Positions 7,006 to 40,494 of a DNA stretch of 64,000 bases are shown here, piece after piece (the first letter of the stretch is position 1; the number at the start of each line of letters is the position of its first letter). Under the pieces are notes generated by a model that made no database searches, had not been told where the DNA came from, and worked only from the letters and a program-made list of their open reading frames with translations. A program made the position numbers and the translations under genes. The DNA is from Brachionus manjavacas (lineage: Eukaryota > Rotifera > Eurotatoria > Ploima > Brachionidae), in assembly GCA_019054805.1 (NCBI GenBank), contig JAHQIY010000013.1, positions 620,001 through 684,000 of the forward strand, read 5' to 3'.

Positions 7006-7046
7006 CAAATTTAAGGATCGAAACGGTAAACGTTAAACGAAAAACA

Positions 7047-7234: not shown

Positions 7235-7262
7235 ATTATTTAAAGTTGATTGTTAAAACTTT

Positions 7263-15032: not shown

Positions 15033-15124
15033 GTTATTAAAAACGGTAAAAATTTGCCGCTTGTATATGGTTTATTTACTAACAAACAACAAACAACTTA
15101 TATTCGATTTTTTAAATTTCATAG

Positions 15125-16355: not shown

Positions 16356-16426
16356 CAGTCAATCCTCCGTACAACGAAACCCCATAGAACGAAAAACCCA
16401 ATAGAACGAATTCGATTATCAGAACC

Positions 16427-16676
16427 AGGTTGGTTGAACGAGTGGTGACTGACTCACATTATTATTTTTCTCGGATTCATTAAAATGAGCATATTGCGTA
16501 AAAGACTGACATATTTCACTAATTTTATGACTTTCTACAACTTTTAGAAAATCCATGGGTTCTTTGATAGATGGAGATCCAAGTGCCGGGTTCAAGGTGA
16601 ACAAATGTTGAGATTTTCTTGGAATCAGATCTGTGGAATTTAGACATAAATAATTTCGCCTAAATTTTTTAGCCAT
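16427..16676 (-). pseudogene. EnSpm-like transposase N-terminal fragment, unit 2
   Basis: About 83 residues from MAKKFRRNYL to SPLVQPTW, ending exactly at the unit 1/unit 2 junction, so the gene is cut by the tandem duplication. Confidence 0.7.
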
Positions 16677-19920: not shown

Positions 19921-20011
19921 GTTATTAAAAACGGTAAAAATTTGCCGCTTGTATATGGTTTATTTACTAACAAACAACAAACAACTTATATTCGATTTTT
20001 AAATTTCATAG

Positions 20012-20619
20012 CGAGAAAATAGCTTGTTGTCTAAAAGCGTGTCTTGTGATTTTGAAGCTGGCATCATAAATTCAATCGAAGACATTTTTCCTGAAGCTGA
20101 TATAGCTGGTTGCTTTTTCATTTTAAAAAATCAATCTGGCGGATTATTCAAGATCGTGGTCTAGCTACTAAATATAATGATTTAAGCCTTGAAGAGAATT
20201 TATTACGCAAGTATAGTAAAATTTTAGCATGCTTAGCTTTTGTTCCAGTTGAACATGTAATTGACGGTTTTGTTTAATTGCAGGGATTAACCCCAAATGA
20301 TTTAAAATGTTTATTTACTTATTTGAAGAAAACTATATAGGGGCCAAAAAACGAACCAAAGTGCCGAGTTGAAAAGATCCGTGATTTGATCGTGAATTAT
20401 GGAATTGTTATACCAGAACTTGTTTCAAGAACAAATAATAATCTAGAAGGCTGGCATAACGCACTCAAATCAACTATAAAATTATATCCGCATCTTTTGA
20501 GTTTATATACTAGTTTAAAATTATAACTATGAAACACTGAAAATGAATATGTTAAGTTGTGTACTGGTCAAGTGAACAAAAAAGCCGCTTTATATAAAAT
20601 TAGAAGATCAAATTTGTAA
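20012..20619 (+). pseudogene. MULE-2 transposase fragment, unit 2
   Basis: Starts after atag in the middle of the MULE domain (CDFEAGIINSIEDIFPEA), runs through GWHNALKSTIKLYPHLLSL and the C-terminal block ENEYVKLCTGQVNKKAALYK, and stops at 20617-20619. The N-terminus and first catalytic Asp are missing, and in-frame stops interrupt it (near 20275 and 20338). About 70-230 bp downstream (20690-20852) are repeated tgtcgaa/acttgtcg motifs, probably the MULE-2 terminal region. That region ends at 20852-20854, where it abuts MULE-1 coding sequence. Confidence 0.7.
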
Positions 20620-20689
20620 AATTGTATCGGATTTTTCATCAATGAAAATTATAGATTTTTTGTAAAATTTATCTTTATTAATTAAGTTT

Positions 20690-20854
20690 TAATTTGATTG
20701 TCGAATGATGTCGAATTTTTTTTGGTCTAATTAATCACTTGTCGAAATTTTACTTGTCTAAATAAAAACTTGTTTAAATTTACCTTTCTGAAATTTAATC
20801 GTCGAATTATAACCTTTCGAAAATTGTTTGTCGAGTTAATGTATTACTACATCC
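20690..20854 (+). repeat. MULE-2 3' terminal region with tgtcgaa motifs
   Basis: Short motifs (attgtcgaatgatgtcgaa, acttgtcgaa, cttgtctaaa, atcgtcgaat, tttgtcgagtt) recur at irregular spacing before the junction with MULE-1 at about 20855. Copies lie at 26117-26276 and, inverted, 34016-34175. The absence of a second, matching end leaves the element boundary and target duplication untested. Confidence 0.5.
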
Positions 20855-21781
20855 AAAAAAGTATCAAGAATGGAGAAATCCAGGCCAATAAATGGTCAAA
20901 CAAAGGTATAAAGCCAACAGAATTAGGATTCAAACATTGGTACGAATGTAAGCATTTAATTTTGCTGGTTGCCAAACAACCATGTATGCTTTAGTTGGAA
21001 TTGGTAGCACAGGTCGTATCTATGTATCGGATAATGAACACACAAACCACCATCAACAAGAAAAAGTTGAAAAAATTCCTCAACACGTTTTTAGACAAAA
21101 TAATCAAATTTGAAGCCTTATTTTTGAAACCAGAAGCTATCCTTCAAAACCTTATTAGGTATCAATCCTCCAAAAAAATCAAAACTCAATAGCGTACTGA
21201 AGAAAATAAGATCCGAAAAGCAAGTTTCAAGTCAGCCCACGTTAAATGATCTGAAAGTTTGGAGCGAAAAATTCAACAGAATTTCAGAAGACGAAGTGTT
21301 TGTTGAGAAAATCAAATAGAACCATTGCCGATTCAAACATTTCGAGTGTTTTTAACAACAAAGCGCCAGATGTCGTTTGCTGCAATTAATGTGCATGTAA
21401 TGTCTGATGCGACCTATAAGTTGAAATTTCAAAATTTCCCAGTGTTAACTTACGGAACAACAGACAGAGCAAAACACTTACACCCATTTGGATTATCAAT
21501 TTGTCGCAATGAAACAGATATTGATTTCGCTTTCTTTTTTAGAGCAATCAAAGAAGTTTCAGCAAGTCTAAATCAAGATATTCAACTAAACAAGCTAATC
21601 GCAGACAACGCAGATGTCATAAAAAATGGTTTTGGAAAAGTGTTCAAAGTTCAATCAAGAGTCAATTGCTGGGCTAATGTCAATCGTAACATTGACCATG
21701 CTTTAAAATTGAACAATAAAATACACAAAGACAATATATTACAATATTTTGAAAATACAAGTATTATTTCAAATAGATCTA
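20855..21781 (+). pseudogene. MULE-1 transposase fragment, unit 2
   Basis: Begins at SIKNGEIQANKWSNKGIK, continues through the finger (frameshifted after WYECKH), linker and catalytic block (open frame 21325-21813), and is cut by the pogo tip after TA 21780-21781. Confidence 0.72.
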
Positions 21782-21852
21782 CAGTCAATCCTCCGTACAA
21801 CGAAACCCCATAGAACGAAAAACCCAATAGAACGAATTCGATTATCAGAACC

Positions 21853-22102
21853 AGGTTGGTTGAACGAGTGGTGACTGACTCACATTATTATTTTTCTCGG
21901 ATTCATTAAAATGAGCATATTGCGTAAAAGACTGACATATTTCACTAATTTTATGACTTTCTACAACTTTTAGAAAATCCATGGGTTCTTTGATAGATGG
22001 AGATCCAAGTGCCGGGTTCAAGGTGAACAAATGTTGAGATTTTCTTGGAATCAGATCTGTGGAATTTAGACATAAATAATTTCGCCTAAATTTTTTAGCC
22101 AT
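21853..22102 (-). pseudogene. EnSpm-like transposase N-terminal fragment, unit 3
   Basis: Identical N-terminal 83 residues, truncated at the unit 2/3 junction. Its mirror in the right arm continues into the full gene. Confidence 0.7.
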
Positions 22103-23851
22103 ATTGATAAATTATTTCTTAAAAAAATTAATTTTTTTTATTCTTTCTGTTTAAAATAATTTTGATTTTATATGCATTAAAAGTATAATGCTCAGAATAT
22201 TTTAGTTTAGGAAAATCTTACAATTAAGAAAAAATAATATTTAATTTTTAAATTTCTGATGTGCATCAAGTCTTAGTTATTGAAAAAAAAATTGATTTAC
22301 TTTGAAAATTTTAGCTATGCATAAACAATATTCAAATATGGCGGGTATTTCAAATTTGTCTAAAATAAAAGTTTCTGATTGGATATTTTTAAATATTAAA
22401 AAAATAGCTTGTTTTCAAATTTGTCTTAAATATTATTCATAAAATATTTATTAATTGAAAAAAACAGAATTTTTATTTTATCTTAATAAAGGAAAATTTT
22501 TTTTAATTAAAATTAAACATATAAAATTAGTTTTTTTGTAATTATTATAAGAATTAAGCAAGCCCAAAAAATTTTTTTACATCACATTATCTTTAAATAA
22601 TTATTTAATATTCCGAGATAAATTGTAGTTAAGTTATAATTGCTCCTTTTTAAATTTCCTAATTGAATTCAAATGATCTTTTTTTTATTATTCAAGCTTC
22701 ATAAAAGAAATTAGACTTTTTAAATTTAATAATATAAAATATTCCAAAAGATTCATGATTTAAGAAGCTCAAGAATGGAATTAATTTTTTCATATTTCAA
22801 ATTAAATTTTTTTCTGTAAATTTTTTAAAAATCTAATTTTCCAATTTATTGTTATATAAAACAATAAATTCGAAAATTAAATTTTTTTAGCATAAAATTA
22901 GCATAATCATTCTTCCGTTGTTAATTAAGCTTAATTAACAACGGTAGAATGTTTATTCTAATTTTTATCATGATTTATTATTTAGGGGAAAAACATTCAC
23001 ATTTTAAAGCTTTCATTTAAAACTTGAACTACTTAAAACAAAGAATATTCGAAAATTAATGGAGTAATACATGCTCCTTTTTTTAATACTTGCGATTTTT
23101 TCTTTGATATAAAACATTCTATTTTCAATAAATTAAGTGAATATGTATTAATGAAAGTTAAGGTTAATCATTAATTAAATTATTTGTCAGTTTTTCCCAA
23201 AAAATAAATCAATGTCATATCAATGTACTTTCTTTATTATTTTACGCTTGTTTTTTTTATTTTTTTTGAAATTAAATTTACTAAGCATATAAATCAAGTC
23301 AAAAGTTTACTTTATTTTAATTCTATCAGTTTATTAGACAGATAATCTGATAGAATCATTAAAGTCTTCATTATTTCGAAAATTATTTAATAATTCAGAA
23401 AATTTTTAATTTAAAATAATTAAAATTTTGGAAATTGTTTTGGAATTTTTTATTTTGATTAGGAAGCTATACGAAAATTTCGAATTTATTTCGAAAATTT
23501 TTCGAAAGGTATTTGCGTTTCAAAATAGAAAAGTTTTCTGAAATTGTTTTTCGAGAAAGTTTCATAGAATTTTCGTAGTGCTTTTTTTTCATTTTTTTTT
23601 TCGAAAAAAATTCGAAAAATTTTCGTTATTTTGTGACTTTTCGAAATTTTTCGGTAGATTTTCGAAAAGCAATTTGACTGGGCTTTTTCTCTTCTTGCAA
23701 TGAAACAAAATATGCAATCAATTTAAAGATGCAATGAAAAAAACGTTCAATGAAATTATCTGCTACGAATCATAATTGATTTGCTATGAAAAATAATTTG
23801 CTACGAAACATTACAGACTCTAATAATTAAATACAAAATAACAAGCAGATT

Positions 23852-25342
23852 TTATATGTAGTTTTCTAAATATTTATATTCAGCTAAAAAATTTATCTGG
23901 AGTTTTTCCTTTCCACCAATATAATAAAGTGAACCACTTGGATTTTCAAGAAAAATCCCTCCTTGTGGCCAAAGATAAACGTTTCTGCCACAACGACTAC
24001 GGCTAATACAAATTCACCAACCTTTGTTTTCTCTGATGTTCGCGTACAGAGAGGCTTTAAATTAATTTAAATTTTGAATTTTTCAATATTTTCATTTTAT
24101 TTTTAAATTACTCTTGTCTCTTTTGTATCTCCATGGGGTAAAGTTTTCTCATCAAATCTTTCTTTTAAAATTTTTTGCTCATTTTCCTTCAATTTTAGTA
24201 AATTTTAACAAAGATTTTACGTTGACATTTTTCGTCTTTAAATATTTTAATTAATTTTGAAATTAGAGCTTTAATTTGTCTAAATTTTATTAATAATGTC
24301 TTTAATCTTTTAAATTAATTCAGAGAATTATGAAATCCCTTTGATATATAAAAAAATAAATAACAAAGCGATTTCAAAATAAGGATAAAAATTTGAAAGA
24401 CGAAAAATTATAGGTTCAGAATTTTTTTAATTTACCAATTGTTGAATTTTGGTTAAAGGATCATGGTAATGGTTTTCATTATTTTCTTTGACAAACTCTT
24501 TTTATTATCATTCATATTCTTCAAAAACAAAATGGTCTTGAAATTGTTTAAAAAAAATAGAATTACTTTTTAATTATCTGACTTTCGTTCATCAAAAAAA
24601 TCGCTATTACCAAATAAAAAGGAAAACGAATGACTCTTTTTAAATCGTCCGGTTCAATTTAGTTGTTAAGATAATCATTTTCTGATTGGAGGTCTTATGT
24701 TTTTTCTTCAAAAGATCCTTGTATTTGATAATTTTAGCCATGACAGGATTTTTCGGACAATTAGCAAAACTTTAAATATAATGAAAACTTTGATAATTTA
24801 ATAAAAATGAAATAGTATCATACCAATACTGAGATTATGGCCAATCTCAGTTTTTACAGAACCATCGCAATTTTTTGAAGGACATTTTGATTGATTATTT
24901 GATATTATTGTAAAATCATTATGTTCTAGATCTTGATTTTTATTAAAATATGAATAAAAAATTTATATAAACATTTATTTTGTAAAGTTAAATACCATAG
25001 ACAGAAAATGATAATTTGCTCACATAGCCCTTTTCAAAATCAGTTTTTCCAAAAGAATTTTGACTATTAACGTCTTGCAAAAGGAGCTTAAATTAGAAAT
25101 TGAAAAAATTTAATGAACAAACAATATATTTTAAAAATTTACCTTGTTCATATTCATTGTATATTGATAAATTTTCTTTTTTTTGAATTTGGTTAAATTG
25201 TTCTGATTCTAGAAATATATTTCAAAAAATTTATATAAACATATAAAATTTATAAATTTATATAAAAATTTATATTTTCACAAACTTTAATTTTACCTTT
25301 TGATAACAAATCTTTTAATTTACACAATTGTTTAGTTTGCAT
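23852..25342 (-). pseudogene. Multi-exon C2HC-finger-like gene remnant, unit 3 copy
   Basis: ATG at 25342, end at 23852; mirror image of the right-arm copy. Confidence 0.4.
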
Positions 25343-25434
25343 GTTATTAAAAACGGTAAAAATTTGCCGCTTGTATATGGTTTATTTACTAACAAACAAC
25401 AAACAACTTATATTCGATTTTTTAAATTTCATAG

Positions 25435-26043
25435 CGAGAAAATAGCTTGTTGTCTAAAAGCGTGTCTTGTGATTTTGAAGCTGGCATCATAAATTCAATC
25501 GAAGACATTTTTCCTGAAGCTGATATAGCTGGTTGCTTTTTCATTTTAAAAAATCAATCTGGCGGATTATTCAAGATCGTGGTCTAGCTACTAAATATAA
25601 TGATTTAAGCCTTGAAGAGAATTTATTACGCAAGTATAGTAAAATTTTAGCATGCTTAGCTTTTGTTCCAGTTGAACATGTAATTGACGGTTTTGTTTAA
25701 TTGCAGGGATTAACCCCAAATGATTTAAAATGTTTATTTACTTATTTGAAGAAAACTATATAGGGGCCAAAAAACGAACCAAAGTGCCGAGTTGAAAAGA
25801 TCCGTGATTTGATCGTGAATTATGGAATTGTTATACCAGAACTTGTTTCAAGAACAAATAATAATCTAGAAGGCTGGCATAACGCACTCAAATCAACTAT
25901 AAAATTATATCCGCATCTTTTGAGTTTATATACTAGTTTAAAATTATAACTATGAAACACTGAAAATGAATATGTTAAGTTGTGTACTGGTCAAGTGAAC
26001 AAAAAAAGCCGCTTTATATAAAATTAGAAGATCAAATTTGTAA
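25435..26043 (+). pseudogene. MULE-2 transposase fragment, unit 3
   Basis: As unit 2, but one extra A in the run after GTGAAC shifts the last C-terminal block; stop near 26041. Confidence 0.68.
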
Positions 26044-26276
26044 AATTGTATCGGATTTTTCATCAATGAAAATTATAGATTTTTTGTAAAATTTATCTTT
26101 ATTAATTAAGTTTTAATTTGATTGTCGAATGATGTCGAATTTTTTTTGGTCTAATTAATCACTTGTCGAAATTTTACTTGTCTAAATAAAAACTTGTTTA
26201 AATTTACCTTTCTGAAATTTAATCGTCGAATTATAACCTTTCGAAAATTGTTTGTCGAGTTAATGTATTACTACAT

Positions 26277-27205
26277 CCAAAAAGAATCAAGAATGGAGAA
26301 ATCCAGGCCAATAAATGGTCAAACAAAGGTATAAAGCCAACAGAATTAGGATTCAAACATTGGTACGAATGTAAGCATTTAATTTTGCTGGTTGCCAAAC
26401 AACCATGTATGCTTTAGTTGGAATTGGTAGCACAGGTCGTATCTATGTATCGGATAATGAACACACAAACCACCATCAACAAGAAAAAGTTGAAAAAATT
26501 CCTCAACACGTTTTTAGACAAAATAATCAAATTTGAAGCCTTATTTTTGAAACCAGAAGCTATCCTTCAAAACCTTATTAGGTATCAATCCTCCAAAAAA
26601 AATCAAAACTCAATAGCGTACTGAAGAAAATAAGATCCGAAAAGCAAGTTTCAAGTCAGCCCACGTTAAATGATCTGAAAGTTTGGAGCGAAAAATTCAA
26701 CAGAATTTCAGAAGACGAAGTGTTTGTTGAGAAAATCAAATAGAACCATTGCCGATTCAAACATTTCGAGTGTTTTTAACAACAAAGCGCCAGATGTCGT
26801 TTGCTGCAATTAATGTGCATGTAATGTCTGATGCGACCTATAAGTTGAAATTTCAAAATTTCCCAGTGTTAACTTACGGAACAACAGACAGAGCAAAACA
26901 CTTACACCCATTTGGATTATCAATTTGTCGCAATGAAACAGATATTGATTTCGCTTTCTTTTTTAGAGCAATCAAAGAAGTTTCAGCAAGTCTAAATCAA
27001 GATATTCAACTAAACAAGCTAATCGCAGACAACGCAGATGTCATAAAAAATGGTTTTGGAAAAGTGTTCAAAGTTCAATCAAGAGTCAATTGCTGGGCTA
27101 ATGTCAATCGTAACATTGACCATGCTTTAAAATTGAACAATAAAATACACAAAGACAATATATTACAATATTTTGAAAATACAAGTATTATTTCAAATAG
27201 ATCTA
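26277..27205 (+). pseudogene. MULE-1 transposase fragment, unit 3
   Basis: Finger, linker and catalytic block (open 26749-27237). A two-base change at the very start (ccaaaaagaatc) and an extra A near 26590 separate it from unit 2. Interrupted by the pogo-like end at 27206 after TA. Confidence 0.72.
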
Positions 27206-27975
27206 CAGTCAATCCTCCGTACAACGAAACCCCATAGAACGAAAAACCCAATAGAACGAATTCGATTATCAGAACCGATTTCGATCAATGGAAAATGAAT
27301 ACTTTTTATCTTCTATAAAACGAATTTCGATGCAACGAAAACCCGATACAACAAGATTCTTCTAACGAACCAATTAATCTTTTTCTTAGGAAATAAAACT
27401 TCATACAACGAAAAATCAAAAAAAAAAAAAAAATTCGCACCTTTATATTATAAAAAAAATCTTGACATTTAATTAACTAATTGGAAATAAAGCCAAAATT
27501 TAATTGTTCTATATTTGACTTTATCTATATTCTTTCAATAAAAAATATATATTTACAGGTAAAAATTTTATCTGTTATTCTTTTTATTAAAATGAGTGAA
27601 AATTTATCTAATCCTGTCCCAAAAAAACGAAAATGTTATTCACTTGAAACAAAAATTGAATGAATGCCACTGCAAATGCGAAAAAAAGAAAACTGGACAA
27701 TGGTACTCAAAATGAAGAAAATAAATTGTGCTCAACTTGCAACATGCCAATCAATGACTAAAAGAAGATATTTTTTTGTTCTAGATTCAACTCAAAAAAT
27801 ATTTTTTATAATAAAAGATGTTGTTTTTATTATTTTAGATAAGTTTCTATTTATTTAGATGAGTTTTTAATAAATTAGAGGTAAGCTTATTAAATTAGAT
27901 TTCTTTTTACTAAAATAGCGAATTTTTTATTAAAATTAGCAGGAGGAAAACTATCGGCCCATGATAAATGCTCAG
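27206..27975 (+). mobile_element. pogo/Jerky-like 5' fragment, left-arm copy
   Basis: Begins CAGTCAATCC after TA, passes through the acgaa-motif region (to about 27440) and the short ATG frame at 27592-27663 with PKKRKCYSLETKIE. It ends at 27975, where host-like GC-rich sequence starts; in the copy at 8708 the same point borders different DNA. Confidence 0.6.
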
Positions 27976-28500
27976 CTTGGTGGAGTCGTGACTCGGCGCC
28001 AATTTCAAGCCAAACTTGGATTCAAAGCCCATTCTTTAGTCATTAAACACCTAATAATTCCCTAAACCCCCTCCGGCGATTCGTGGTCGCCCGACGCGCT
28101 CAGCATCGACTGCACCAGACCACTCATACATAGCTCGTACGAAGATAGGCCTTTGTCGGTCTCGCCCACTACTTCTTTCAATTGAACGAGTGTCGACCGA
28201 AATTTTGTCTCACGCAATGACATCACGTCTTCGATTTGCTCGACCACTCGTTTCAGTGTGATGAAGAGGAGACGCGGCGGCTATTGCTGAAAATAGTCGA
28301 AATGGAGTCTATTGGCCAACGTGACACATTGACGTTTTAATTGTCTTTGTTTGAATTTGGTTGAGTTTTGGTTGGCAGCGGACAGGTATTGCTCGAAAGC
28401 GTTCAATTTTGACAAGTTGGTAGACAGTAAGTGTTTGGGCACGGCGATTGAGTCGCCGAGTGTGTGCGTGCCGCAATCCAAGCTGTGCTTATGATCTGAA
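27976..28500 (-). pseudogene. Captured host exon fragment, HECT E3 ligase-like (left arm)
   Basis: GC content and codon use differ sharply from the surroundings. Minus-strand frame 28481-28062 reads through one in-frame TAG: NLSKLNAFEQYLSAANQNS, NRLHFDYFQQ, then VVEQIEDVMSLRETKFRSTL and SSYELCMSGLVQSML. The SSYE..SGLV..LL pattern recalls the region before the HECT domain in TRIP12/HECTD1-class ubiquitin ligases; this is from memory and tentative. No HECT domain, start or splice frame is present, so it is a fragment carried in the rearranged block. Its mirror copy is 31799-32323. Confidence 0.4.
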
Positions 28501-29353
28501 TGGCAAACTGCTCATATATCAGAATCCAGTCAAAATTTGAGCTTATTTTTTGATTTTTTGAATATTGAATAGTTTTTTAAAAGATCTATTTAATTTGCAA
28601 AAATATCTGCATTTGATTTAATTTTGTCTTCATGATTTTAATTTTTTTTTTCAAAAAGACACCTGAACGACTAATTAAAAAAAAAAATTTAAATTTAAAT
28701 TTTTAATAAAGCAAATTTGCTTTATTTTTGAGCAAAAAAAATTAAGAAAAAAGCTTATTCCTCAAAAAAGTTATTCAAGTTTAGCTGAATTGAAACGAAT
28801 TTCACAACCACAATAAATTTTAATAAGTTATATCTTACAGGGATTGTGAAGTTCGTTTCAATTCGATCTTTTCAATTCAGAAAAATTTGAAAGCTTTTTA
28901 ACTGAAAGAGATAATTTAGTTCTGCAAAAATTTTAAGGAAATTTGCTTAATACAGTAAATAAGTGTGAAAAAGGTATTTTTAGAAGTTCATTAACAGAAA
29001 TGAAGCTGTTCAAATATATTGTTACATTTTTCTTGCTCTCTGTGTTAGAATGTGATTTAATTAGACAAAAAAAAAGATTACAGAAGAAGAAAATGTAAAA
29101 TGAATCCATTCGTTTTGATCTAATTTAATAATTTATTAGTCAATGAAGATTGGTATGTTCAGAAATTGCATTTGATCGAGTATTTAACCTTTATCCGTCG
29201 AAAAAGCATTTTCTATTTGAAAGATATTTTATTATATTTAGTCTTGAATTACAGCGCTCTTTCATTTCATCCACCATTGGACAATTAGTTTTGAGTCTAA
29301 CGGGATCCCTTAAATTTTCACTTTTCCTCGTTATTTTAGTGGATGTCATTAAT
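28501..29353. other. AT-rich palindrome-arm sequence without a supportable gene
   Basis: Contains an internal inverted repeat: gaatt..gaaacgaatttcacaa (about 28785-28810) and ttgtgaagttcgtttcaattc (about 28845-28865). Otherwise long A/T runs. Mirrored at 30946-31798. Confidence 0.5.
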
Positions 29354-30150
29354 TTAAAGGTCAAGAGTAATTTTTACTTTAGTTTTTTTCTCAAAGATCA
29401 TGTAACATGACTTTTCAGGAGAAATTTTCATTTTCCATTTGGAAAGGCGCCTTTCAACTTCTTTAAAGTACTTATTAATCATTTTTTCAAGATTTGTCTT
29501 TTTAAAAATAAAAAAAGTAGCCAAATCATCTGCAAAAGGAAGAAAGTATTGGCAATTTGTTTTGTTTCTTTTTGGTATGTCATTTATAAAAATGCTAAAA
29601 AGAAGTGGATTTATTACCCACCCTTGTGGAACTCTTTTATTGGGTATTGATCCTTTAATGATCATTTACTTTTATCTAAAGGATCTTAAATGCAAAAACG
29701 AACTTATCCAATGAATAAGATAAGGAGGTAGATTTATTTTAATTATCTTTACAATTAGTCCATCATGCCAAACTCGATCAAAAGCTTTAGAAATGTCAAA
29801 TTATTGACAGCAGACTTATTTCTTTCTATTATAAGACTCTACGACTTTTTGAATGAGAAATAAAGATTATCTGCAGTGCGTCTGTGTTTTCTGAATCCTG
29901 ATAGCTCATTTATAAGTAATTTATTGTTCTCAAGAAAAATATATATATACTGGTGTAAATAATACGTTCAAGGTTTTTTGAGAGAAAATGAGAATGGTCT
30001 TATCTTAGAGAAAATTATTAACAGGCCCAATCTCTCAGTAATTAACGATAAGACACCAACATAAAATAGATTTAAGACGGAATATTTTGAAGTCCTTGAT
30101 ATTTTTTTGATACAGTCTTCACCCTCAGATAGAGTTCACGACTTCAAGGT
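29354..30150 (-). pseudogene. Non-LTR retrotransposon reverse transcriptase fragment (left arm plus spacer)
   Basis: Read on the minus strand from the spacer: a broken stretch with LSKNLERIIY (about 29960), GFRKHRRTADNLYFSFKKS, FDISKAFDRVWHDGLI (about 29795-29750), VPQGWVINPLLFSIFINDIP (29640-29580) and FADDLATFF (about 29530). It ends near 29354. The order LSKxxE, GFR, DxSKAFDxVxH, PQGS-like, FADD is that of Jockey/CR1-type RTs; YADD is replaced by FADD. The frame breaks upstream of 29665. Only this copy keeps the segment crossing into the spacer, so the original element lay in this orientation. Confidence 0.75.
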
Positions 30151-30356
30151 TCTTATAGATGATGTTGAGTGATCATTTTCCTTTTCAAGCATTCATTTCA
30201 GTAGAGCAAACTTTCACAGTTAATTGTTCGAATTCTAATTTTAATTTTAAAAAAGCGAATTGGGGACTCTACCAAGATCTACTAAAGTCTTCAAGTCTAC
30301 ACAATAATTTTACGGGAAATATTGACGAGCTAAATTAACACATCTCAAAATAAATC
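29943..30356. other. 414-bp unpaired spacer at the centre of the giant palindrome
   Basis: Neither half pairs with the other. The left part continues the minus-strand non-LTR RT. The rest, on the minus strand, reads as broken frames (for example DCIKKISRTSKYS) that may be further upstream RT sequence. Contains nothing identifiable as an origin or recombination site. Confidence 0.8.
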
Positions 30357-30945
30357 ATATTTTTCTTGAGAACAATAAATTACTTATAAATGAGCTATCA
30401 GGATTCAGAAAACACAGACGCACTGCAGATAATCTTTATTTCTCATTCAAAAAGTCGTAGAGTCTTATAATAGAAAGAAATAAGTCTGCTGTCAATAATT
30501 TGACATTTCTAAAGCTTTTGATCGAGTTTGGCATGATGGACTAATTGTAAAGATAATTAAAATAAATCTACCTCCTTATCTTATTCATTGGATAAGTTCG
30601 TTTTTGCATTTAAGATCCTTTAGATAAAAGTAAATGATCATTAAAGGATCAATACCCAATAAAAGAGTTCCACAAGGGTGGGTAATAAATCCACTTCTTT
30701 TTAGCATTTTTATAAATGACATACCAAAAAGAAACAAAACAAATTGCCAATACTTTCTTCCTTTTGCAGATGATTTGGCTACTTTTTTTATTTTTAAAAA
30801 GACAAATCTTGAAAAAATGATTAATAAGTACTTTAAAGAAGTTGAAAGGCGCCTTTCCAAATGGAAAATGAAAATTTCTCCTGAAAAGTCATGTTACATG
30901 ATCTTTGAGAAAAAAACTAAAGTAAAAATTACTCTTGACCTTTAA
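30357..30945 (+). pseudogene. Non-LTR retrotransposon RT fragment (right arm)
   Basis: Mirror of the left fragment from GFRKHRRTADNL onward: AFDRVWHDGLI, the PQGW and FADD motifs, ending at 30945. It starts abruptly at the palindrome inner boundary, so the upstream RT half is absent. Confidence 0.75.
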
Positions 30946-31798
30946 ATTAATGACATCCACTAAAATAACGAGGAAAAGTGAAAATTTAAGGGATCCCGTT
31001 AGACTCAAAACTAATTGTCCAATGGTGGATGAAATGAAAGAGCGCTGTAATTCAAGACTAAATATAATAAAATATCTTTCAAATAGAAAATGCTTTTTCG
31101 ACGGATAAAGGTTAAATACTCGATCAAATGCAATTTCTGAACATACCAATCTTCATTGACTAATAAATTATTAAATTAGATCAAAACGAATGGATTCATT
31201 TTACATTTTCTTCTTCTGTAATCTTTTTTTTGTCTAATTAAATCACATTCTAACACAGAGAGCAAGAAAAATGTAACAATATATTTGAACAGCTTCATTT
31301 CTGTTAATGAACTTCTAAAAATACCTTTTTCACACTTATTTACTGTATTAAGCAAATTTCCTTAAAATTTTTGCAGAACTAAATTATCTCTTTCAGTTAA
31401 AAAGCTTTCAAATTTTTCTGAATTGAAAAGATCGAATTGAAACGAACTTCACAATCCCTGTAAGATATAACTTATTAAAATTTATTGTGGTTGTGAAATT
31501 CGTTTCAATTCAGCTAAACTTGAATAACTTTTTTGAGGAATAAGCTTTTTTCTTAATTTTTTTTGCTCAAAAATAAAGCAAATTTGCTTTATTAAAAATT
31601 TAAATTTAAATTTTTTTTTTTAATTAGTCGTTCAGGTGTCTTTTTGAAAAAAAAAATTAAAATCATGAAGACAAAATTAAATCAAATGCAGATATTTTTG
31701 CAAATTAAATAGATCTTTTTAAAAAACTATTCAATATTCAAAAAATCAAAAAATAAGCTCAAATTTTGACTGGATTCTGATATATGAGCAGTTTGCCA

Positions 31799-32323
31799 TT
31801 CAGATCATAAGCACAGCTTGGATTGCGGCACGCACACACTCGGCGACTCAATCGCCGTGCCCAAACACTTACTGTCTACCAACTTGTCAAAATTGAACGC
31901 TTTCGAGCAATACCTGTCCGCTGCCAACCAAAACTCAACCAAATTCAAACAAAGACAATTAAAACGTCAATGTGTCACGTTGGCCAATAGACTCCATTTC
32001 GACTATTTTCAGCAATAGCCGCCGCGTCTCCTCTTCATCACACTGAAACGAGTGGTCGAGCAAATCGAAGACGTGATGTCATTGCGTGAGACAAAATTTC
32101 GGTCGACACTCGTTCAATTGAAAGAAGTAGTGGGCGAGACCGACAAAGGCCTATCTTCGTACGAGCTATGTATGAGTGGTCTGGTGCAGTCGATGCTGAG
32201 CGCGTCGGGCGACCACGAATCGCCGGAGGGGGTTTAGGGAATTATTAGGTGTTTAATGACTAAAGAATGGGCTTTGAATCCAAGTTTGGCTTGAAATTGG
32301 CGCCGAGTCACGACTCCACCAAG
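31799..32323 (+). pseudogene. Captured host exon fragment, HECT E3 ligase-like (right arm)
   Basis: Plus-strand frame 31818-32237 with a single TAG at about 32016, then an open piece in another frame (FESKFGLKLAPSHDSTKL, 32270-32323) up to the border with the pogo fragment. Same tentative TRIP12/HECTD1-class resemblance as the left copy; both copies share the stop, so it predates the inversion or was copied with it. Confidence 0.4.
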
Positions 32324-33087
32324 CTGAGCATTTATCATGGGCCGATAGTTTTCCTCCTGCTAATTTTAATAAAAAATTCGCTATTTTAGTAAAAAGAAAT
32401 CTAATTTAATAAGCTTACCTCTAATTTATTAAAAACTCATCTAAATAAATAGAAACTTATCTAAAATAATAAAAACAACATCTTTTATTATAAAAAATAT
32501 TTTTTGAGTTGAATCTAGAACAAAAAAAATATCTTCTTTTAGTCATTGATTGGCATGTTGCAAGTTGAGCACAATTTATTTTCTTCATTTTGAGTACCAT
32601 TGTCCAGTTTTCTTTTTTTCGCATTTGCAGTGGCATTCATTCAATTTTTGTTTCAAGTGAATAACATTTTCGTTTTTTTGGGACAGGATTAGATAAATTT
32701 TCACTCATTTTAATAAAAAGAATAACAGATAAAATTTTTACCTGTAAATATATATTTTTTATTGAAAGAATATAGATAAAGTCAAATATAGAACAATTAA
32801 ATTTTGGCTTTATTTCCAATTAGTTAATTAAATGTCAAGATTTTTTATAATATAAAGGTGCGAATTTTTTTTTTTGATTTTTCGTTGTATGAAGTTTTAT
32901 TTCCTAAGAAAAAGATTAATTGGTTCGTTAGAAGAATCTTGTTGTATCGGGTTTTCGTTGCATCGAAATTCGTTTTATAGAAGATAAAAAGTATTCATTT
33001 TCCATTGATCGAAATCGGTTCTGATAATCGAATTCGTTCTATTGGGTTTTTCGTTCTATGGGGTTTCGTTGTACGGAGGATTGACTG
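32324..33087 (-). mobile_element. pogo/Jerky-like 5' fragment, right-arm copy
   Basis: Mirror of 27206-27975, terminus CAGTCAATCC at 33087 next to TA 33088-33089. Shorter poly-A/T run than the copy at 8708. Confidence 0.6.
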
Positions 33088-34015
33088 TAGATCTATTTGA
33101 AATAATACTTGTATTTTCAAAATATTGTAATATATTGTCTTTGTGTATTTTATTGTTCAATTTTAAAGCATGGTCAATGTTACGATTGACATTAGCCCAG
33201 CAATTGACTCTTGATTGAACTTTGAACACTTTTCCAAAACCATTTTTTATGACATCTGCGTTGTCTGCGATTAGCTTGTTTAGTTGAATATCTTGATTTA
33301 GACTTGCTGAAACTTCTTTGATTGCTCTAAAAAGAAAGCGAAATCAATATCTGTTTCATTGCGACAAATTGATAATCCAAATGGGTGTAAGTGTTTTGCT
33401 CTGTCTGTTGTTCCGTAAGTTAACACTGGGAAATTTTGAAATTTCAACTTATAGGTCGCATCAGACATTACATGCACATTAATTGCAGCAAACGACATCT
33501 GGCGCTTTGTTGTTAAAAACACTCGAAATGTTTGAATCGGCAATGGTTCTATTTGATTTTCTCAACAAACACTTCGTCTTCTGAAATTCTGTTGAATTTT
33601 TCGCTCCAAACTTTCAGATCATTTAACGTGGGCTGACTTGAAACTTGCTTTTCGGATCTTATTTTCTTCAGTACGCTATTGAGTTTTGATTTTTTTGGAG
33701 GATTGATACCTAATAAGGTTTTGAAGGATAGCTTCTGGTTTCAAAAATAAGGCTTCAAATTTGATTATTTTGTCTAAAAACGTGTTGAGGAATTTTTCAA
33801 CTTTTTCTTGTTGATGGTGGTTTGTGTGTTCATTATCCGATACATAGATACGACCTGTGCTACCAATTCCAACTAAAGCATACATGGTTGTTTGGCAACC
33901 AGCAAAATTAAATGCTTACATTCGTACCAATGTTTGAATCCTAATTCTGTTGGCTTTATACCTTTGTTTGACCATTTATTGGCCTGGATTTCTCCATTCT
34001 TGATACTTTTTTGGA
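33088..34015 (-). pseudogene. MULE-1 transposase fragment, right arm
   Basis: Same content as unit 3. Two homopolymer changes alter frames: one near 33330 cuts the catalytic frame at 81 residues, and another near 33797 fuses the finger frame to the downstream KFLNTFLDK frame. Joins MULE-2's end at 34015. Confidence 0.7.
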
Positions 34016-34247
34016 TGTAGTAATACATTAACTCGACAAACAATTTTCGAAAGGTTATAATTCGACGATTAAATTTCAGAAAGGTAAATTTAAACAAGTT
34101 TTTATTTAGACAAGTAAAATTTCGACAAGTGATTAATTAGACCAAAAAAAATTCGACATCATTCGACAATCAAATTAAAACTTAATTAATAAAGATAAAT
34201 TTTACAAAAAATCTATAATTTTCATTGATGAAAAATCCGATACAATT

Positions 34248-34858
34248 TTACAAATTTGATCTTCTAATTTTATATAAAGCGGCTTTTTTTTGTTCACTTG
34301 ACCAGTACACAACTTAACATATTCATTTTCAGTGTTTCATAGTTATAATTTTAAACTAGTATATAAACTCAAAAGATGCGGATATAATTTTATAGTTGAT
34401 TTGAGTGCGTTATGCCAGCCTTCTAGATTATTATTTGTTCTTGAAACAAGTTCTGGTATAACAATTCCATAATTCACGATCAAATCACGGATCTTTTCAA
34501 CTCGGCACTTTGGTTCGTTTTTTGGCCCCTATATAGTTTTCTTCAAATAAGTAAATAAACATTTTAAATCATTTGGGGTTAATCCCTGCAATTAAACAAA
34601 ACCGTCAATTACATGTTCAACTGGAACAAAAGCTAAGCATGCTAAAATTTTACTATACTTGCGTAATAAATTCTCTTCAAGGCTTAAATCATTATATTTA
34701 GTAGCTAGACCACGATCTTGAATAATCCGCCAGATTGATTTTTTAAAATGAAAAAAGCAACCAGCTATATCAGCTTCAGGAAAAATGTCTTCGATTGAAT
34801 TTATGATGCCAGCTTCAAAATCACAAGACACGCTTTTAGACAACAAGCTATTTTCTCG
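34248..34858 (-). pseudogene. MULE-2 transposase fragment, right arm
   Basis: The longest intact stretch of this domain (34846-34592): SCDFEAGIINSIEDIFPEA, AGCFFHFKKSIWRIIQDRGL, LACLAFVPVEHVIDGF. The other three copies lose one base in the CFFHF block. GWHNALKS and the C-terminal GQVNKKAALYK block follow after two stops. FE-x-FP...CFFHF...Y is typical of animal MULE transposases. The catalytic Asp of the first motif and the N-terminal finger are missing, so it cannot encode a complete enzyme. Confidence 0.75.
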
Positions 34859-34950
34859 CTATGAAATTTAAAAAATCGAATATAAGTTGTTTGTTGTTTG
34901 TTAGTAAATAAACCATATACAAGCGGCAAATTTTTACCGTTTTTAATAAC

Positions 34951-36444
34951 ATGCAAACTAAACAATTGTGTAAATTAAAAGATTTGTTATCAAAAGGTAA
35001 AATTAAAGTTTGTGAAAATATAAATTTTTATATAAATTTATAAATTTTATATGTTTATATAAATTTTTTGAAATATATTTCTAGAATCAGAACAATTTAA
35101 CCAAATTCAAAAAAAAGAAAATTTATCAATATACAATGAATATGAACAAGGTAAATTTTTAAAATATATTGTTTGTTCATTAAATTTTTTCAATTTCTAA
35201 TTTAAGCTCCTTTTGCAAGACGTTAATAGTCAAAATTCTTTTGGAAAAACTGATTTTGAAAAGGGCTATGTGAGCAAATTATCATTTTCTGTCTATGGTA
35301 TTTAACTTTACAAAATAAATGTTTATATAAATTTTTTATTCATATTTTAATAAAAATCAAGATCTAGAACATAATGATTTTACAATAATATCAAATAATC
35401 AATCAAAATGTCCTTCAAAAAATTGCGATGGTTCTGTAAAAACTGAGATTGGCCATAATCTCAGTATTGGTATGATACTATTTCATTTTTATTAAATTAT
35501 CAAAGTTTTCATTATATTTAAAGTTTTGCTAATTGTCCGAAAAATCCTGTCATGGCTAAAATTATCAAATACAAGGATCTTTTTGAAGAAAAAACATAAG
35601 ACCTTCAATCAGAAAATGATTATCTTAACAACTAAATTGAACCGGACGATTTAAAAAAGAGTCATTCGTTTTCCTTTTTATTTGGTAATAGCGATTTTTT
35701 TGATGAACGAAAGTCAGATAATTAAAAAGTAATTCTATTTTTTTAAACAATTTCAAGACCATTTTGTTTTTGAAGAATATGAATGATAATAAAAAAGAGT
35801 TTGTCAAAGAAAATAATGAAAACCATTACCATGATCCTTTAACCAAAATTCAACAATTGGTAAATTAAAAAAAATTCTGAACCTATAATTTTTCGTCTTT
35901 CAAATTTTTATCCTTATTTTGAAATCGCTTTGTTATTTATTTTTTTATATATCAAAGGGATTTCATAATTCTCTGAATTAATTTAAAAGATTAAAGACAT
36001 TATTAATAAAATTTAGACAAATTAAAGCTCTAATTTCAAAATTAATTAAAATATTTAAAGACGAAAAATGTCAACGTAAAATCTTTGTTAAAATTTACTA
36101 AAATTGAAGGAAAATGAGCAAAAAATTTTAAAAGAAAGATTTGATGAGAAAACTTTACCCCATGGAGATACAAAAGAGACAAGAGTAATTTAAAAATAAA
36201 ATGAAAATATTGAAAAATTCAAAATTTAAATTAATTTAAAGCCTCTCTGTACGCGAACATCAGAGAAAACAAAGGTTGGTGAATTTGTATTAGCCGTAGT
36301 CGTTGTGGCAGAAACGTTTATCTTTGGCCACAAGGAGGGATTTTTCTTGAAAATCCAAGTGGTTCACTTTATTATATTGGTGGAAAGGAAAAACTCCAGA
36401 TAAATTTTTTAGCTGAATATAAATATTTAGAAAACTACATATAA
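34951..36444 (+). pseudogene. Multi-exon gene remnant with a C2HC-finger-like motif, right-arm copy
   Basis: Four short exons splice in a consistent phase 1: 34951-34996, 35085-35150, 35220-35297 and 35362-35469, all with GT-AG introns of about 64-88 bp. They give MQTKQLCKLKDLLSK, then acidic/polar sequence, then KCPSKNCDGSVKTEIGHNLS. A later frame (from about 35524) has ANCPKNPVMAKIIKYKD. Together C-x4-C...H...CP resembles MYT1/KAT7-type C2HC fingers, but His spacing is short and the frame breaks at the fifth exon. Further coding-like pieces follow (FLKNMNDNKKEFVKENNENH at about 35770-35830, KERFDEKTLPHGDTKETRV at about 36140-36185, and YLWPQGGIFLENPSGSLYYI at about 36315-36375). Intron-bearing structure next to a truncated MULE suggests a captured host gene fragment; alternatively it is an unknown transposon gene. 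Confidence 0.4.
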
Positions 36445-36811
36445 AATCTGCTTGTTATTTTGTATTTAATTATTAGAGTCTGTAATGTTTCGTAGCAAAT
36501 TATTTTTCATAGCAAATCAATTATGATTCGTAGCAGATAATTTCATTGAACGTTTTTTTCATTGCATCTTTAAATTGATTGCATATTTTGTTTCATTGCA
36601 AGAAGAGAAAAAGCCCAGTCAAATTGCTTTTCGAAAATCTACCGAAAAAATTTCGAAAAGTCACAAAATAACGAAAATTTTTCGAATTTTTTTCGAAAAA
36701 AAAAATGAAAAAAAAGCACTACGAAAATTCTATGAAACTTTCTCGAAAAACAATTTCAGAAAACTTTTCTATTTTGAAACGCAAATACCTTTCGAAAAAT
36801 TTTCGAAATAA

Positions 36812-38198
36812 ATTCGAAATTTTCGTATAGCTTCCTAATCAAAATAAAAAATTCCAAAACAATTTCCAAAATTTTAATTATTTTAAATTAAAAATTTTCT
36901 GAATTATTAAATAATTTTCGAAATAATGAAGACTTTAATGATTCTATCAGATTATCTGTCTAATAAACTGATAGAATTAAAATAAAGTAAACTTTTGACT
37001 TGATTTATATGCTTAGTAAATTTAATTTCAAAAAAAATAAAAAAAACAAGCGTAAAATAATAAAGAAAGTACATTGATATGACATTGATTTATTTTTTGG
37101 GAAAAACTGACAAATAATTTAATTAATGATTAACCTTAACTTTCATTAATACATATTCACTTAATTTATTGAAAATAGAATGTTTTATATCAAAGAAAAA
37201 ATCGCAAGTATTAAAAAAAGGAGCATGTATTACTCCATTAATTTTCGAATATTCTTTGTTTTAAGTAGTTCAAGTTTTAAATGAAAGCTTTAAAATGTGA
37301 ATGTTTTTCCCCTAAATAATAAATCATGATAAAAATTAGAATAAACATTCTACCGTTGTTAATTAAGCTTAATTAACAACGGAAGAATGATTATGCTAAT
37401 TTTATGCTAAAAATTTAATTTTCGAATTTATTGTTTTATATAACAATAAATTGGAAAATTAGATTTTTAAAAAATTTACAGAAAAAAAATTTAATTTGAA
37501 ATATGAAAAAAAATTAATTCCATTCTTGAGCTTCTTAAATCATGAATCTTTTGGAATATTTTATATTATTAAATTTAAAAAGTCTAATTTCTTTTATGAA
37601 GCTTGAATAATAAAAAAAAAAGATCATTTGAATTCAATTAGGAAATTTAAAAAGGAGCAATTATAACTTAACTACAATTTATCTCGGAATATTAAATAAT
37701 TATTTAAAGATAATGTGATGTAAAAAAATTTTTTGGGCTTGCTTAATTCTTATAATAATTACAAAAAAACTAATTTTATATGTTTAATTTTAATTAAAAA
37801 AAATTTTCCTTTATTAAGATAAAATAAAAATTCTGTTTTTTTCAATTAATAAATATTTTATGAATAATATTTAAGACAAATTTGAAAACAAGCTATTTTT
37901 TTTAATATTTAAAAATATCCAATCAGAAACTTTTATTTTAGACAAATTTGAAATACCCGCCATATTTGAATATTGTTTATGCATAGCTAAAATTTTCAAA
38001 GTAAATCAATTTTTTTTTCAATAACTAAGACTTGATGCACATCAGAAATTTAAAAATTAAATATTATTTTTTCTTAATTGTAAGATTTTCCTAAACTAAA
38101 ATATTCTGAGCATTATACTTTTAATGCATATAAAATCAAAATTATTTTAAACAGAAAGAATAAAAAAAATTAATTTTTTTAAGAAATAATTTATCAAT
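36812..38198. other. AT-rich 5' part of the EnSpm-like element with hairpins
   Basis: No coding frame. Holds the 30-bp perfect palindrome (37353-37382) inside a longer hairpin, a neighbouring 19-bp hairpin (about 37418-37462), and an attctatcag/ctgatagaat hairpin (36941-36977). Probable untranslated and promoter region for the transposase gene. Confidence 0.5.
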
Positions 38199-40494
38199 AT
38201 GGCTAAAAAATTTAGGCGAAATTATTTATGTCTAAATTCCACAGATCTGATTCCAAGAAAATCTCAACATTTGTTCACCTTGAACCCGGCACTTGGATCT
38301 CCATCTATCAAAGAACCCATGGATTTTCTAAAAGTTGTAGAAAGTCATAAAATTAGTGAAATATGTCAGTCTTTTACGCAATATGCTCATTTTAATGAAT
38401 CCGAGAAAAATAATAATGTGAGTCAGTCACCACTCGTTCAACCAACCTGGGAAGTGATTTCGGAGCCAAAAACACTCCATAATGAGCATATAGACCAGAA
38501 ATTGCATATTTGCTTATCGATTTATAAACTCTTCATAAAAAACAAAATGACCAAAACTTGCATTAACGAAGTCATTAAGCTAATAGGAATTCTAAGATCA
38601 GATGTAAAAATTCCTGCATGTATTGACAAAATTGTCCTTTACTTATACAGAAATGAAAATAATCAGTTTGACGTTCAACCGTATGACTTTTGCAATTTGT
38701 GCCGAAAAACAAAAAAAACTTCAAACAACTCCACCCAAAAATGTGACAACTGTCCAAGTGATATGTCAAAATTTATCACATCAAAATTTTCGATCAGCTA
38801 AAAAATATTTTCGAATCTTCTGAGCATTTAATAAACAAATCAACCATCACTCATTCTGAGATATATTCAAGAATCAAACTTCAAGAAAAAGGTGAGTTTT
38901 ATACTTTTACTTTCAATACTGATGGCATTAGTCCTTTTAAATCATCTAAAACATGTATTTGGCCTTTTTATTTAGTAATAAATGAAATCGAGATTAAGTA
39001 TAGATTTAACTTTTCAAATATCATTTTAGCAGGTATTTTCGTAGGCCAAAATAAGCCCTGCTTTTTAAATTATCTAAAACTAATAATTAATGAAATTAAG
39101 AGCTTAGAAAAAGGCGAGGTAATAAAGATTAAAATGAATTCAGGCTTGTGAAATTTTTTTTAACTTATGCTGTAGTAGATAAGCCAGCTCGCGCATCGTT
39201 GCTTAATTTTGAACAATTTAATGGAAATTATGGCTGTACTAAATGTTATCAAAAAGGACAGAATTTATCTACTAAAAAAAAGGTACAGTCCATGTATATC
39301 CCTACCAAAATTATAATCATGAAGGACCACTACGTTCACAAAATTCTTACCATAAGGATCTAATACATGTAGTTACAAATAATCAAGCATTTCGTGGTGT
39401 TAAAGGTTCTAAAATATTTTTTGCCTATTGAATGTACGATGATAGACTATATGCATAGTATTTTAGAGGGTGTAATAAGAAAACTAATTGAATATTGGTT
39501 TTCACCTGGATTTTCCAAGCAACCATTCTCACTGAGACCACATTTAGAAAAAATTAATGAAAACTTTCTTAAAATAAGGAAACCAAAATATGTCCCAAGA
39601 ATACCTTGAGACTTAAATAGTATTAAATATTGGAAAGCAAGTGAATTTTTGTCATTCATTCTTTTTTACGCTTTACCAATATTTGGAGGAATAATGAATT
39701 TAGACCAGTTAAACCATTTAATAAATCTGGTCGTTGTCATAGAAAATTTATTATTGAAACAAGTAAATACAAGTTATTTAGATGATATTAATATTTTGTT
39801 AAGTGATTTTGTTAGGGATATGTCAAAATTCTACGGACCAAATTCAATGTTATCTGGTGTTCATGAACTTCTACATCTGGTTAGAGATATAAGAAACATA
39901 GGCAATCTAAACGAATTTAACTGTTTTCCATATGAAAAATTAAATAGAGAACTTCTACTTTTAGTCAAAGGCAAAAATTTAATTGAAATTGAAATAATTA
40001 ATTCATTTAAGGCTCTAAAAAATGTTGACTTAATTAAAAATATTAGTTCAGAAATTTTAAATGAAGAGATAGAGTTTAAATATTTATTTGGTAAGAAGAT
40101 TAATCGTCAGCTTACCGAAAAAGAACTTAAGTTCTTGAAAAATAATAATAATAGTTTCACAATTCATAGTTATTGTAAGTTTAATAATATTTTCTTTTCC
40201 TCTTTGTGTTACAAGAAAACTAAACGTCTTGACCACTGTGTAAAATATGATAAAAAATTTGGTCTAATTAAGTTTTTCATCAAAACCTCAAAACAATCTT
40301 ATGCATTTTGTTATGTTCTGTCTGCTTTACATAATCCATTTTATAACCCTAAATTTCCTTTTTTAAAATCATCAACTACTATCTGCCATCAGACTGACAA
40401 TATTTTCCTTGCTCCTATAGATCAATTGCAAAAATGTGCACTAATAAATGCCAACGACGTTATTTGTGTTTGTGAAATGAATACATCTCACTAA
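38199..40494 (+). pseudogene. EnSpm/CACTA-like transposase, near full length but broken
   Basis: Starts MAKKFRRNYL. An N-terminal region has a Cys cluster (FCNLCRKTKK...CDNC, about 38690-38755). The catalytic part follows: FNTDGISPFKSSKTCIWPFYL (about 38905-38970), IILAGIFVGQNKPCFL, VVDKPARASLLNFEQFNGNYGCTKCYQKG (39170-39260), CTMIDYMHSILEGVIRKL (about 39430-39485), WKASEFLSFILFYALPIFGG (39633-39690) and FYGPNSMLSGVHELLHLVRDI. This is the order seen in animal transposases of the Tnp2/Transposase_21 type. Breaks: frame changes near 38785, 39146 and 39410, and a TGA at 39607-39609. The 281-residue C-terminal frame from 39649 is intact. It is the complete parent of the fragments in units 1-3. 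Confidence 0.75.

What the first reader, a model, noticed from the sequence alone, without database searches (positions are those of the whole stretch)
21851..38450. Giant palindrome with 8.1-kb arms and a 414-bp asymmetric spacer
Arms 21851-29942 and 30357-38450 are reverse complements at near identity, with coordinates summing to about 60300 throughout. The spacer belongs to the RT fragment of the left arm only, and the right arm's outer flank is the intact EnSpm gene. This suggests the right side is ancestral and the left arm arose by fold-back or template-switch copying. Near identity means it is very young or maintained by gene conversion. Large palindromes are known in some asexual rotifer genomes and on sex chromosomes; whether that applies here is inference.
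Basis: partly seen in the sequence, partly recalled or inferred. Interest (0 to 1): 0.82.

Follow-up and report, generated by a model that had tools for sequence, protein, structure and literature searches.

The report
Young fold-back palindrome in rotifer genome
A stretch of a rotifer chromosome rich in mobile elements appears to have been copied back onto itself as a near-perfect mirror image, and a second mirror-image block built partly from the same pieces lies roughly 300,000 bases away on the same contig; this looks like a recent broken-chromosome repair scar rather than a functional element.

Summary
The palindrome is in the assembled sequence as stated: 21851-29942 and 30357-38450, 99.6% identical, with 1 plain substitution, 1 small complex change and 21 homopolymer indels. 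The left side (11295-29942) is an inverted copy of 30357-38690 in which a 5.4-kb unit is tandemly triplicated. It breaks off inside an open frame that runs on unbroken on the right, so the right side is ancestral. Most of the spacer is not left-arm sequence but LINE-like DNA in right-arm orientation. Other LINE copies indicate a fold-back with a loop of about 1.1 kb, then a ~785-bp central deletion.

A second palindrome (B; arms 7.5 kb, 99.67%, spacer 2.83 kb) at C13:328697-346506 shares the inner segment. The junctions scored have 1-3 bp of overlap or 2-3-bp insertions, so long homology was not used. The host is a rotifer near Brachionus (one protein), so bdelloid and sex-chromosome parallels do not fit. 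Best explanation: fold-back repair of a break with template switching or end joining. Arm-to-arm gene conversion is possible, not proven. An assembly artefact is unlikely but not excluded without reads.

The parts
6975..8710 (+). Outermost patch of the rearranged left side: pieces 6975-7232, 7233-7895 and 8143-8710 match the right flank of palindrome B (C13:346494-348933)
   Evidence: 97.7, 99.85 and 96.3% by BLAST; 7233-7895 has 0 substitutions in 663 bases
8702..11292 (-). Displaced MULE-containing copy, inverted relative to the left arm, of B type (contains 885 bp of the 985-bp stretch that the A arms lack); joined to 6975-8710 through a 3-bp overlap (CTG)
   Evidence: 1 substitution in 2582 bases against B's left arm, 0 in 1711 against B's right arm
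11295..11534 (-). True outer end of the left arm: inverted copy of 38450-38690; joined to the 8702-11292 piece with a 2-bp insertion
   Evidence: (239 identical of 241 columns)
11534..16425 (+). Unit U1, first tandem copy, with a ~540-bp internal deletion at 15584/15588 carrying a 3-bp insertion
16426..21851 (+). Unit U2, second tandem copy; both tandem junctions have the same 2-bp (CC) overlap
21852..27276 (+).
27277..29942 (+). Inner part Y of the left arm, ending in the inverted 3' part of a LINE-like element (RVT_1 at 29357-29665, minus strand)
29943..29977 (+). Last ~35 bp of the left-arm element, missing from the right arm; fold-back junction at about 29971-29977
29971..30358 (+). Main part of the spacer: 5'-ward segment of the LINE-like element in right-arm orientation (fold-back loop remnant)
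   Evidence: 82-92% to six genomic copies; five of the six also match the 3' part, in the same relative orientation
30357..33016 (-). Inner part Y' of the right arm (element's 3' part forward); starts at the junction of a ~785-bp central deletion
   Evidence: 0 substitutions in 2645 sites against the left arm
33017..38450 (-). Unit U4, the single right-hand (ancestral) copy; MULE remnant and further repeats
   Evidence: MULE domain found in the copy at 9449-9952
38451..38690 (-). Outermost right-arm segment shared with the left side
38190..38801 (+).

Best explanation
A chromosome broke inside a LINE-like element near satellite DNA. The resected end folded back on itself about 1.1 kb inwards and primed synthesis that copied the right-hand sequence outwards as an inverted left arm of at least 8.3 kb. 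Synthesis or joining then moved to other templates of the same neighbourhood (breakpoints 38690/11295, then 8702), reconnecting to the satellite side. Later or concurrent steps: a tandem duplication of the 5.4-kb unit in the left arm with expansion to three copies, a ~540-bp deletion in one of them, and a ~785-bp deletion at the palindrome centre that left the present 414-bp asymmetric spacer. It is a repair scar with no evidence of function. Shown: structure, polarity, junction sequences, segment order in other copies of the element. Inferred: the break, fold-back synthesis, template switching or end joining, and the order of events.
For: Right side continuous across the outer breakpoint, left broken. 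In copies L003, L004, L005 and L007 (4 of 6 examined) the spacer segment and the arm segment are in one orientation, 1099-1135 bp between segment starts, with 775-787 bp missing in the window between 30358 and about 30357: as expected if the spacer is the loop on the ancestral right side. Spacer lengths (1.1 kb reconstructed, 2.83 kb in B) lie in the 766-70,466 bp range of 21 sequenced human fold-back junctions (PMC3907307, passages read). Junctions: 2-bp overlap twice, 3-bp, 1-bp, or 2-3-bp insertions, so no long homology. Second palindrome on the contig from partly the same segment.
Against: 1-3 bp overlaps are not above chance here (random mean 0.9 bp), so they exclude long homology but do not prove microhomology priming. 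At the fold-back junction the parent sequence is known only from copies 82-92% alike, so its overlap is uncertain (about 1 bp by eye; 2-8 bp in 13 of 21 human junctions). No DNA copy of the flank spans 38690; continuity there rests on the protein match. No unrearranged allele or relative was available, and no reads. The left outer flank C13:610001-620000 reads N.
Confidence: 0.6

Rival explanations
1. One ancestral palindrome was copied to both loci; B then lost its centre (equivalent of window 29929-33191), and within each locus the arms were kept alike by gene conversion, so looking young does not mean being young.
For: B's inner part equals A's inner part minus one asymmetric central block. 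B's inner end (29928) lies 49 bp from A's fold-back junction. A and B differ at 6 of ~1187 sites in 34016-35206 with 0 within-A and 0 within-B substitutions, but at 0 of ~980 in X and at 1 site plus one 5-bp shift of ~2650 in Y (Fisher P 0.001, or 0.012 counting clustered changes as events). In B's arms 8 of 9 substitutions fall in 430 bp (5 of 200000 random draws after merging neighbours), a patchwork expected of conversion tracts.
Against: The 985-bp loss and the different sequence beyond 35206 are present in both arms of A or of B, so each would have to have spread to the second arm. Folsomia palindromes were judged not to be explained by concerted evolution (PMC5490193, passages). An AT-rich (TA)n stretch near 29942 could be a recurrent break site.
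Confidence: 0.22
2. A single catastrophic replication event (chromoanasynthesis-like) made A, B and the 8702-11292 patch together by serial template switching between two loci.
For: X-Y divergence between A and B (1 substitution plus one 5-bp shift in about 3,630 sites) is of the same order as among A's own copies; patch 8702-11292 is nearly identical to both B arms (1 in 2582 and 0 in 1711); the joins scored lack long homology.
Against: A-B divergence of 0.5% in 34016-35206 and 8 clustered differences in B's arms are too many for one event without conversion; separate young events explain the rest.
Confidence: 0.1
3. Assembly or library artefact (fold-back chimeric reads, wrong graph path).
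For: A's arms differ almost only in homopolymers (21 of 22 indels), which is what consensus error looks like; no reads available; repeats and satellite adjoin.
Against: Copy number of the unit differs (3 vs 1), with a private ~540-bp deletion and private substitutions; B's arms carry 9 substitutions; C2 holds a large inverted duplication at 96.4-99.0% in its three longest matches, too diverged for an artefact; polarity makes biological sense.
Confidence: 0.08

Closest known systems
Fold-back inverted duplications with single-copy spacer (Hermetz et al. 2014, PMC3907307; passages read, abstract among them; author name recalled)
   Same: Inverted copies separated by a short non-duplicated spacer that reads on from the ancestral side; spacer length range; outer end of the copy joined to other sequence
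   Different: Arms of 8 kb rather than Mb; interstitial, not shown to sit beside a terminal deletion; followed by a central deletion and a tandem triplication; 2-bp inverted microhomology not shown
Foldback inversions with secondary rearrangements in yeast (PMC7467729; passages read)
   Same: Hairpin-primed inversion stabilised by further rearrangements, sometimes with three to six copies
   Different: Yeast secondary events were mostly mediated by homologous recombination; the joins scored here lack long homology
Ampliconic palindromes of mammalian sex chromosomes (PMC3723533, PMC8981503; starts of abstracts in a search listing only)
   Same: Near-identical arms, short spacer, possible arm-to-arm conversion
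   Different: No host gene found in the arm frames tested, no sex chromosome (recalled for monogononts), far smaller arms (recalled)
Gene palindromes of Adineta vaga (2013 assembly) and Folsomia candida (PMC5916493, PMC7749112, PMC5490193; passages read)
   Same: Intra-scaffold inverted blocks in animals with parthenogenesis
   Different: Those are collinear gene blocks; this one is mobile-element DNA. The A. vaga ones were found again in the same 2013 assembly (23 palindromes), but only one in another A. vaga assembly (whose low N50 its authors note) and none in A. ricciae

Membership tests
Fold-back inverted duplication | Inverted copies with a single-copy spacer between them | tested here: met
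   spacer 414 bp in A, 2.83 kb in B (B's spacer is single within B; a related copy lies in A)
Fold-back inverted duplication | Spacer continuous with the ancestral copy in the unrearranged sequence | tested here: met
   on other copies of the element, not on an unrearranged allele: five of six hold both segments in one orientation; four of six at 1099-1135 bp
Fold-back inverted duplication | Spacer length in the known range (766-70,466 bp, median 3,428) | tested here: met
   Reconstructed 1.1 kb (A), 2.83 kb (B); the present 414 bp of A lies below the range and fits only with the inferred deletion
Fold-back inverted duplication | Inverted microhomology of 2 bp or more at the spacer boundary | tested here: inconclusive
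   A: about 1 bp by eye, parent sequence only known from copies 82-92% alike; B centre: 1 bp
Fold-back inverted duplication | Loss of the sequence distal to the break | not testable with these tools
   No unrearranged allele or related genome held
Sex-chromosome ampliconic palindrome | Located on a sex chromosome, arms carry expressed genes | tested here: not met
   Of 12 frames of 100 aa or more overlapping 8702-38801, 6 were scanned: MULE in one, RVT_1 in one, nothing in four; 5 others are copies of scanned ones, 1 (11492-11794) was not scanned. Absence of sex chromosomes in monogononts is recalled; expression not testable
Sex-chromosome ampliconic palindrome | Arm-to-arm gene conversion | tested here: inconclusive
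   Within-locus homogeneity and clustered differences fit conversion and also recent origin
Ameiotic gene palindrome (A. vaga type) | Collinear homologous genes in mirror order | tested here: not met
   Arms consist of repeats with copies elsewhere; no gene block found

The most novel reading that the evidence does not exclude
Palindromes A and B bound a block of about 280 kb that holds satellite arrays where it was sampled. They descend from one fold-back palindrome that was copied, lost its centre in one locus, and has since been homogenised arm-to-arm within each locus: a natural record of how a palindrome is born, trimmed at its centre and kept alike in a cyclically parthenogenetic animal.
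Probability: 0.2. Interest if true: 0.6.

Novelty: new member of a known kind. Interest (0 to 1): 0.42.

Why it matters
Fold-back inversions are best known from human disease, tumours and yeast selection systems (partly recalled). Here two of them stand in an animal genome assembly, with polarity, loop, central deletion and outer joins readable to the base or nearly so, beside satellite arrays. If confirmed with reads, rotifer strains could show how often such palindromes arise, lose their centres and undergo arm-to-arm conversion. It also warns against reading every palindrome in a rotifer assembly as evidence of ameiotic evolution.

Tried and rejected
Terminal inverted repeats of one large transposon: rejected, since the arms contain fragments of several elements whose other copies lie scattered, and the outer end is broken inside an open frame on one side only.

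Twin priming of a LINE as the source of the inversion: rejected, because the inverted copy runs about 8 kb beyond the element.

A 985-bp transposon insertion at 34012 in B: rejected in favour of a loss in A. There is no target-site duplication beyond about 1 bp, and among the matches listed none outside C13 runs across the site (they begin at about 34026 or end at about 34010). The complex change at 26284 first looked like an excision footprint; left unexplained.

Alternate haplotype copies: every listed match of 99% or more is on C13. These searches score only the best candidates, and one search did not list the unit copies of the left side, so such lists are lower bounds.

Genome-wide frequency of palindromes: could not be measured. 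Outside the window and locus B, 80 kb was read (C13:395001-415000, C23:685001-705000, C13:684001-694000, and three 10-kb pieces of C2). The first three showed no inverted repeat longer than 703 columns (listing limited to 300 bases or more). C2 did, but C2 was chosen because hinted at an inverted pair there, so it is no unbiased sample.

Species name: placed by one protein only. A COX1 search found only one gene, bacterial-looking. Rfam at gathering thresholds and tRNA searches of the window gave nothing. Papers on rotifer palindromes or inverted duplications: searches listed none about palindromes in monogononts (open-licence library only); one search listed the bdelloid ones.
Full report
OBSERVATION. 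Self-BLAST of the window shows 30357-38450 against 29942-21851 at 99.605% over 8108 columns. Base-level alignment gives one plain substitution (24689/35605), one complex change (26284-26286) and 21 indels in homopolymer runs. The palindrome is real in the assembly and far beyond chance.

The left side is larger and more complex. Three direct copies of a 5.4-kb unit lie at 11534-16425, 16426-21851 and 21852-27276, one inverted copy at 33017-38450, and 11295-11534 is the inverted copy of 38450-38690. So 11295-29942 is the inverted counterpart of 30357-38690, with the unit present three times instead of once. U1 lacks about 540 bp. Both tandem junctions are the same (2-bp overlap CC), as expected if one duplication expanded by unequal exchange; that step is inference. 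Further out, 8702-11292 is a displaced copy of the MULE part in the other orientation, and 6975-8710 matches the right flank of palindrome B in three pieces. The 254-bp satellite ends at 3587.

POLARITY. The frame 38190-38798 crosses 38690. Three distant relatives in the genome (C11, C1, C3) align over residues 1-196 at 39%, across the breakpoint at residue ~167, and two more (C27 at 35%, residues 4-196; C4 at 40%, residues 70-196) also cross it, whereas the left copy departs there at the DNA level. Close DNA copies of the flank do not help: none listed spans 38690.

THE CENTRE. Six genomic copies of the element were compared. In L003, L004, L005 and L007 the segment 29971-30358 and the segment from 30357 (30361 in L007) onwards lie in the same orientation, with 775-787 bp between them that the window lacks, while 29977 leftwards matches the same region in reverse, starting 1099-1135 bp from the start of the spacer segment. 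L002 agrees in orientation with other spacing; L006 matches the spacer alone. Hence the spacer belongs with the right side: it is the remnant of a fold-back loop of about 1.1 kb, and a deletion of about 785 bp later removed most of the loop and 35 bp of the right arm. The order of these two steps is inferred. I call the element LINE-like: RVT_1 was found, and L004 just upstream of the spacer segment reads, by eye, GGDLNAK, which recalls the endonuclease of non-LTR elements (motif recalled, not tested).

SECOND PALINDROME. At C13:328697-336182 / 339013-346506 lies palindrome B, 99.67% over 7498 columns, spacer 2.83 kb. Its inner part equals the window's: 335361-339013 = 26279-29928, and 339013-339839 = 33192-34015. 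B's inner part therefore equals A's without 29929-33191. Outside 35206 the two loci share no long match. A lacks 985 bp that B holds and of which 8702-11292 holds 885 bp. B's right flank passes into a satellite array at 349.35 kb related to the window's (about 65%).

DIVERGENCE. In 34016-35206 A and B differ at 6 of ~1187 sites (5 of 808 for U1, which covers only that part), with no substitution among A's four copies or between B's arms; in X (33017-34000) at 0 of ~980, though the displaced copy at 8702-11292 has 1 private change; in Y at 1 site plus a 5-bp shift of ~2650. The contrast is significant (P 0.001; 0.012 when clustered changes are merged). B's arms hold 9 substitutions (7 further mismatch columns come from one misaligned indel), 8 of them within 430 bp (0 of 200000 random draws, 5 of 200000 after merging neighbours). 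Outgroup copies suggest that 5 of these 8 changed in B's right arm; of the other 3, one differs from the outgroups in both arms and two point to the left arm. This patchwork suggests exchange between copies, but does not say whether arm-to-arm conversion or exchange with a third copy.

JUNCTIONS. U tandem 2 bp (twice); 8702 3 bp; B centre 1 bp; 11292/11295 a 2-bp insertion; U1 deletion a 3-bp insertion; the 985-bp loss reads as a 2-bp insertion against B's left arm and about 1 bp of overlap against B's right arm, whose poly-A length matches (by eye). The 785-bp deletion could not be anchored by script; by eye about 2 bp. A first script misregistered several joins and was replaced; its random control stands: 0.9 bp on average. 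So the data exclude long-homology recombination at these joins but do not prove microhomology use.

HOST. The host is thus a rotifer near Brachionus on the strength of one protein. Monogonont biology (cyclic parthenogenesis, haploid males) is recalled.

MECHANISM. Fold-back repair after a break in the element explains the loop position, the polarity and the open outer end of the copy. The spacers (1.1 kb reconstructed, 2.83 kb) match the human range of 766-70,466 bp, and yeast fold-back inversions are likewise stabilised by secondary rearrangements, some with three to six copies. Outer joins to other neighbourhood copies suggest template switching or end joining. Whether B arose on its own or shares A's origin is open. 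B's inner end is 49 bp from A's fold-back junction, which favours shared origin; the 985-bp loss and the 35206 boundary, present in both arms, favour independent origin.

ARTEFACT. Near-exclusive homopolymer differences and missing reads are a reason for caution. Against an artefact speak the 3-to-1 copy number, private deletion and substitutions, B's diverged arms, and a large inverted duplication on C2 (9135001-9144063 vs 9233768-9224001, limits set by what was fetched; the three longest matches 96.4-99.0%).

KNOWN OR NEW. Literature seen: passages of PMC3907307, PMC7467729, PMC5916493, PMC7749112 and PMC5490193; others in search listings only. Three searches listed no description of such palindromes in monogononts. 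I file it as a new member of a known kind.

Noticed in passing
L019/L020/L023/L024 (C13:328697-346506): Second palindrome with 7.5-kb arms; 8 of its 9 arm substitutions lie within 430 bp (329801-330230).
   Followed up: partly
L051/L052 (C2:9135001-9144063 and 9224001-9233768): Large inverted duplication about 80 kb apart, 96.4-99.0% in its three longest matches, limits set by the fetched ends, with a tandem repeat inside; older than palindrome A.
   Followed up: partly
L039 (C13:395001-402894): Direct duplication of about 3.2 kb at 99.3% ending beside a satellite patch of the same type as B's flank.
   Followed up: no
C33:222312, 235719, 249117: Copies of an arm repeat (window 35385-36475) spaced about 13.4 kb apart: probable large tandem array.
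   Followed up: no
window 1-3587: 254-bp satellite array; diverged relatives on C13, C23, C34, C32 and other contigs, on several of which copies of the arm repeats also lie.
   Followed up: partly
window 26284-26286: Small complex change in U3 a few bases from the 985-bp loss junction, absent from U2 and U4.
   Followed up: no
window 43625-44293 (-): Tc5-type transposase DNA-binding domain (HTH_Tnp_Tc5, E 3.8e-13).
   Followed up: no
window 48662-48954, 49333-49593, 51652-51906: Short self-complementary repeats (MITE-like by appearance) near the ion-channel frames.
   Followed up: no
G000:C21:120555-121901: COX1 family gene open for 667 aa in the standard code: C21 may be a bacterial contig in the assembly.
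   Followed up: no
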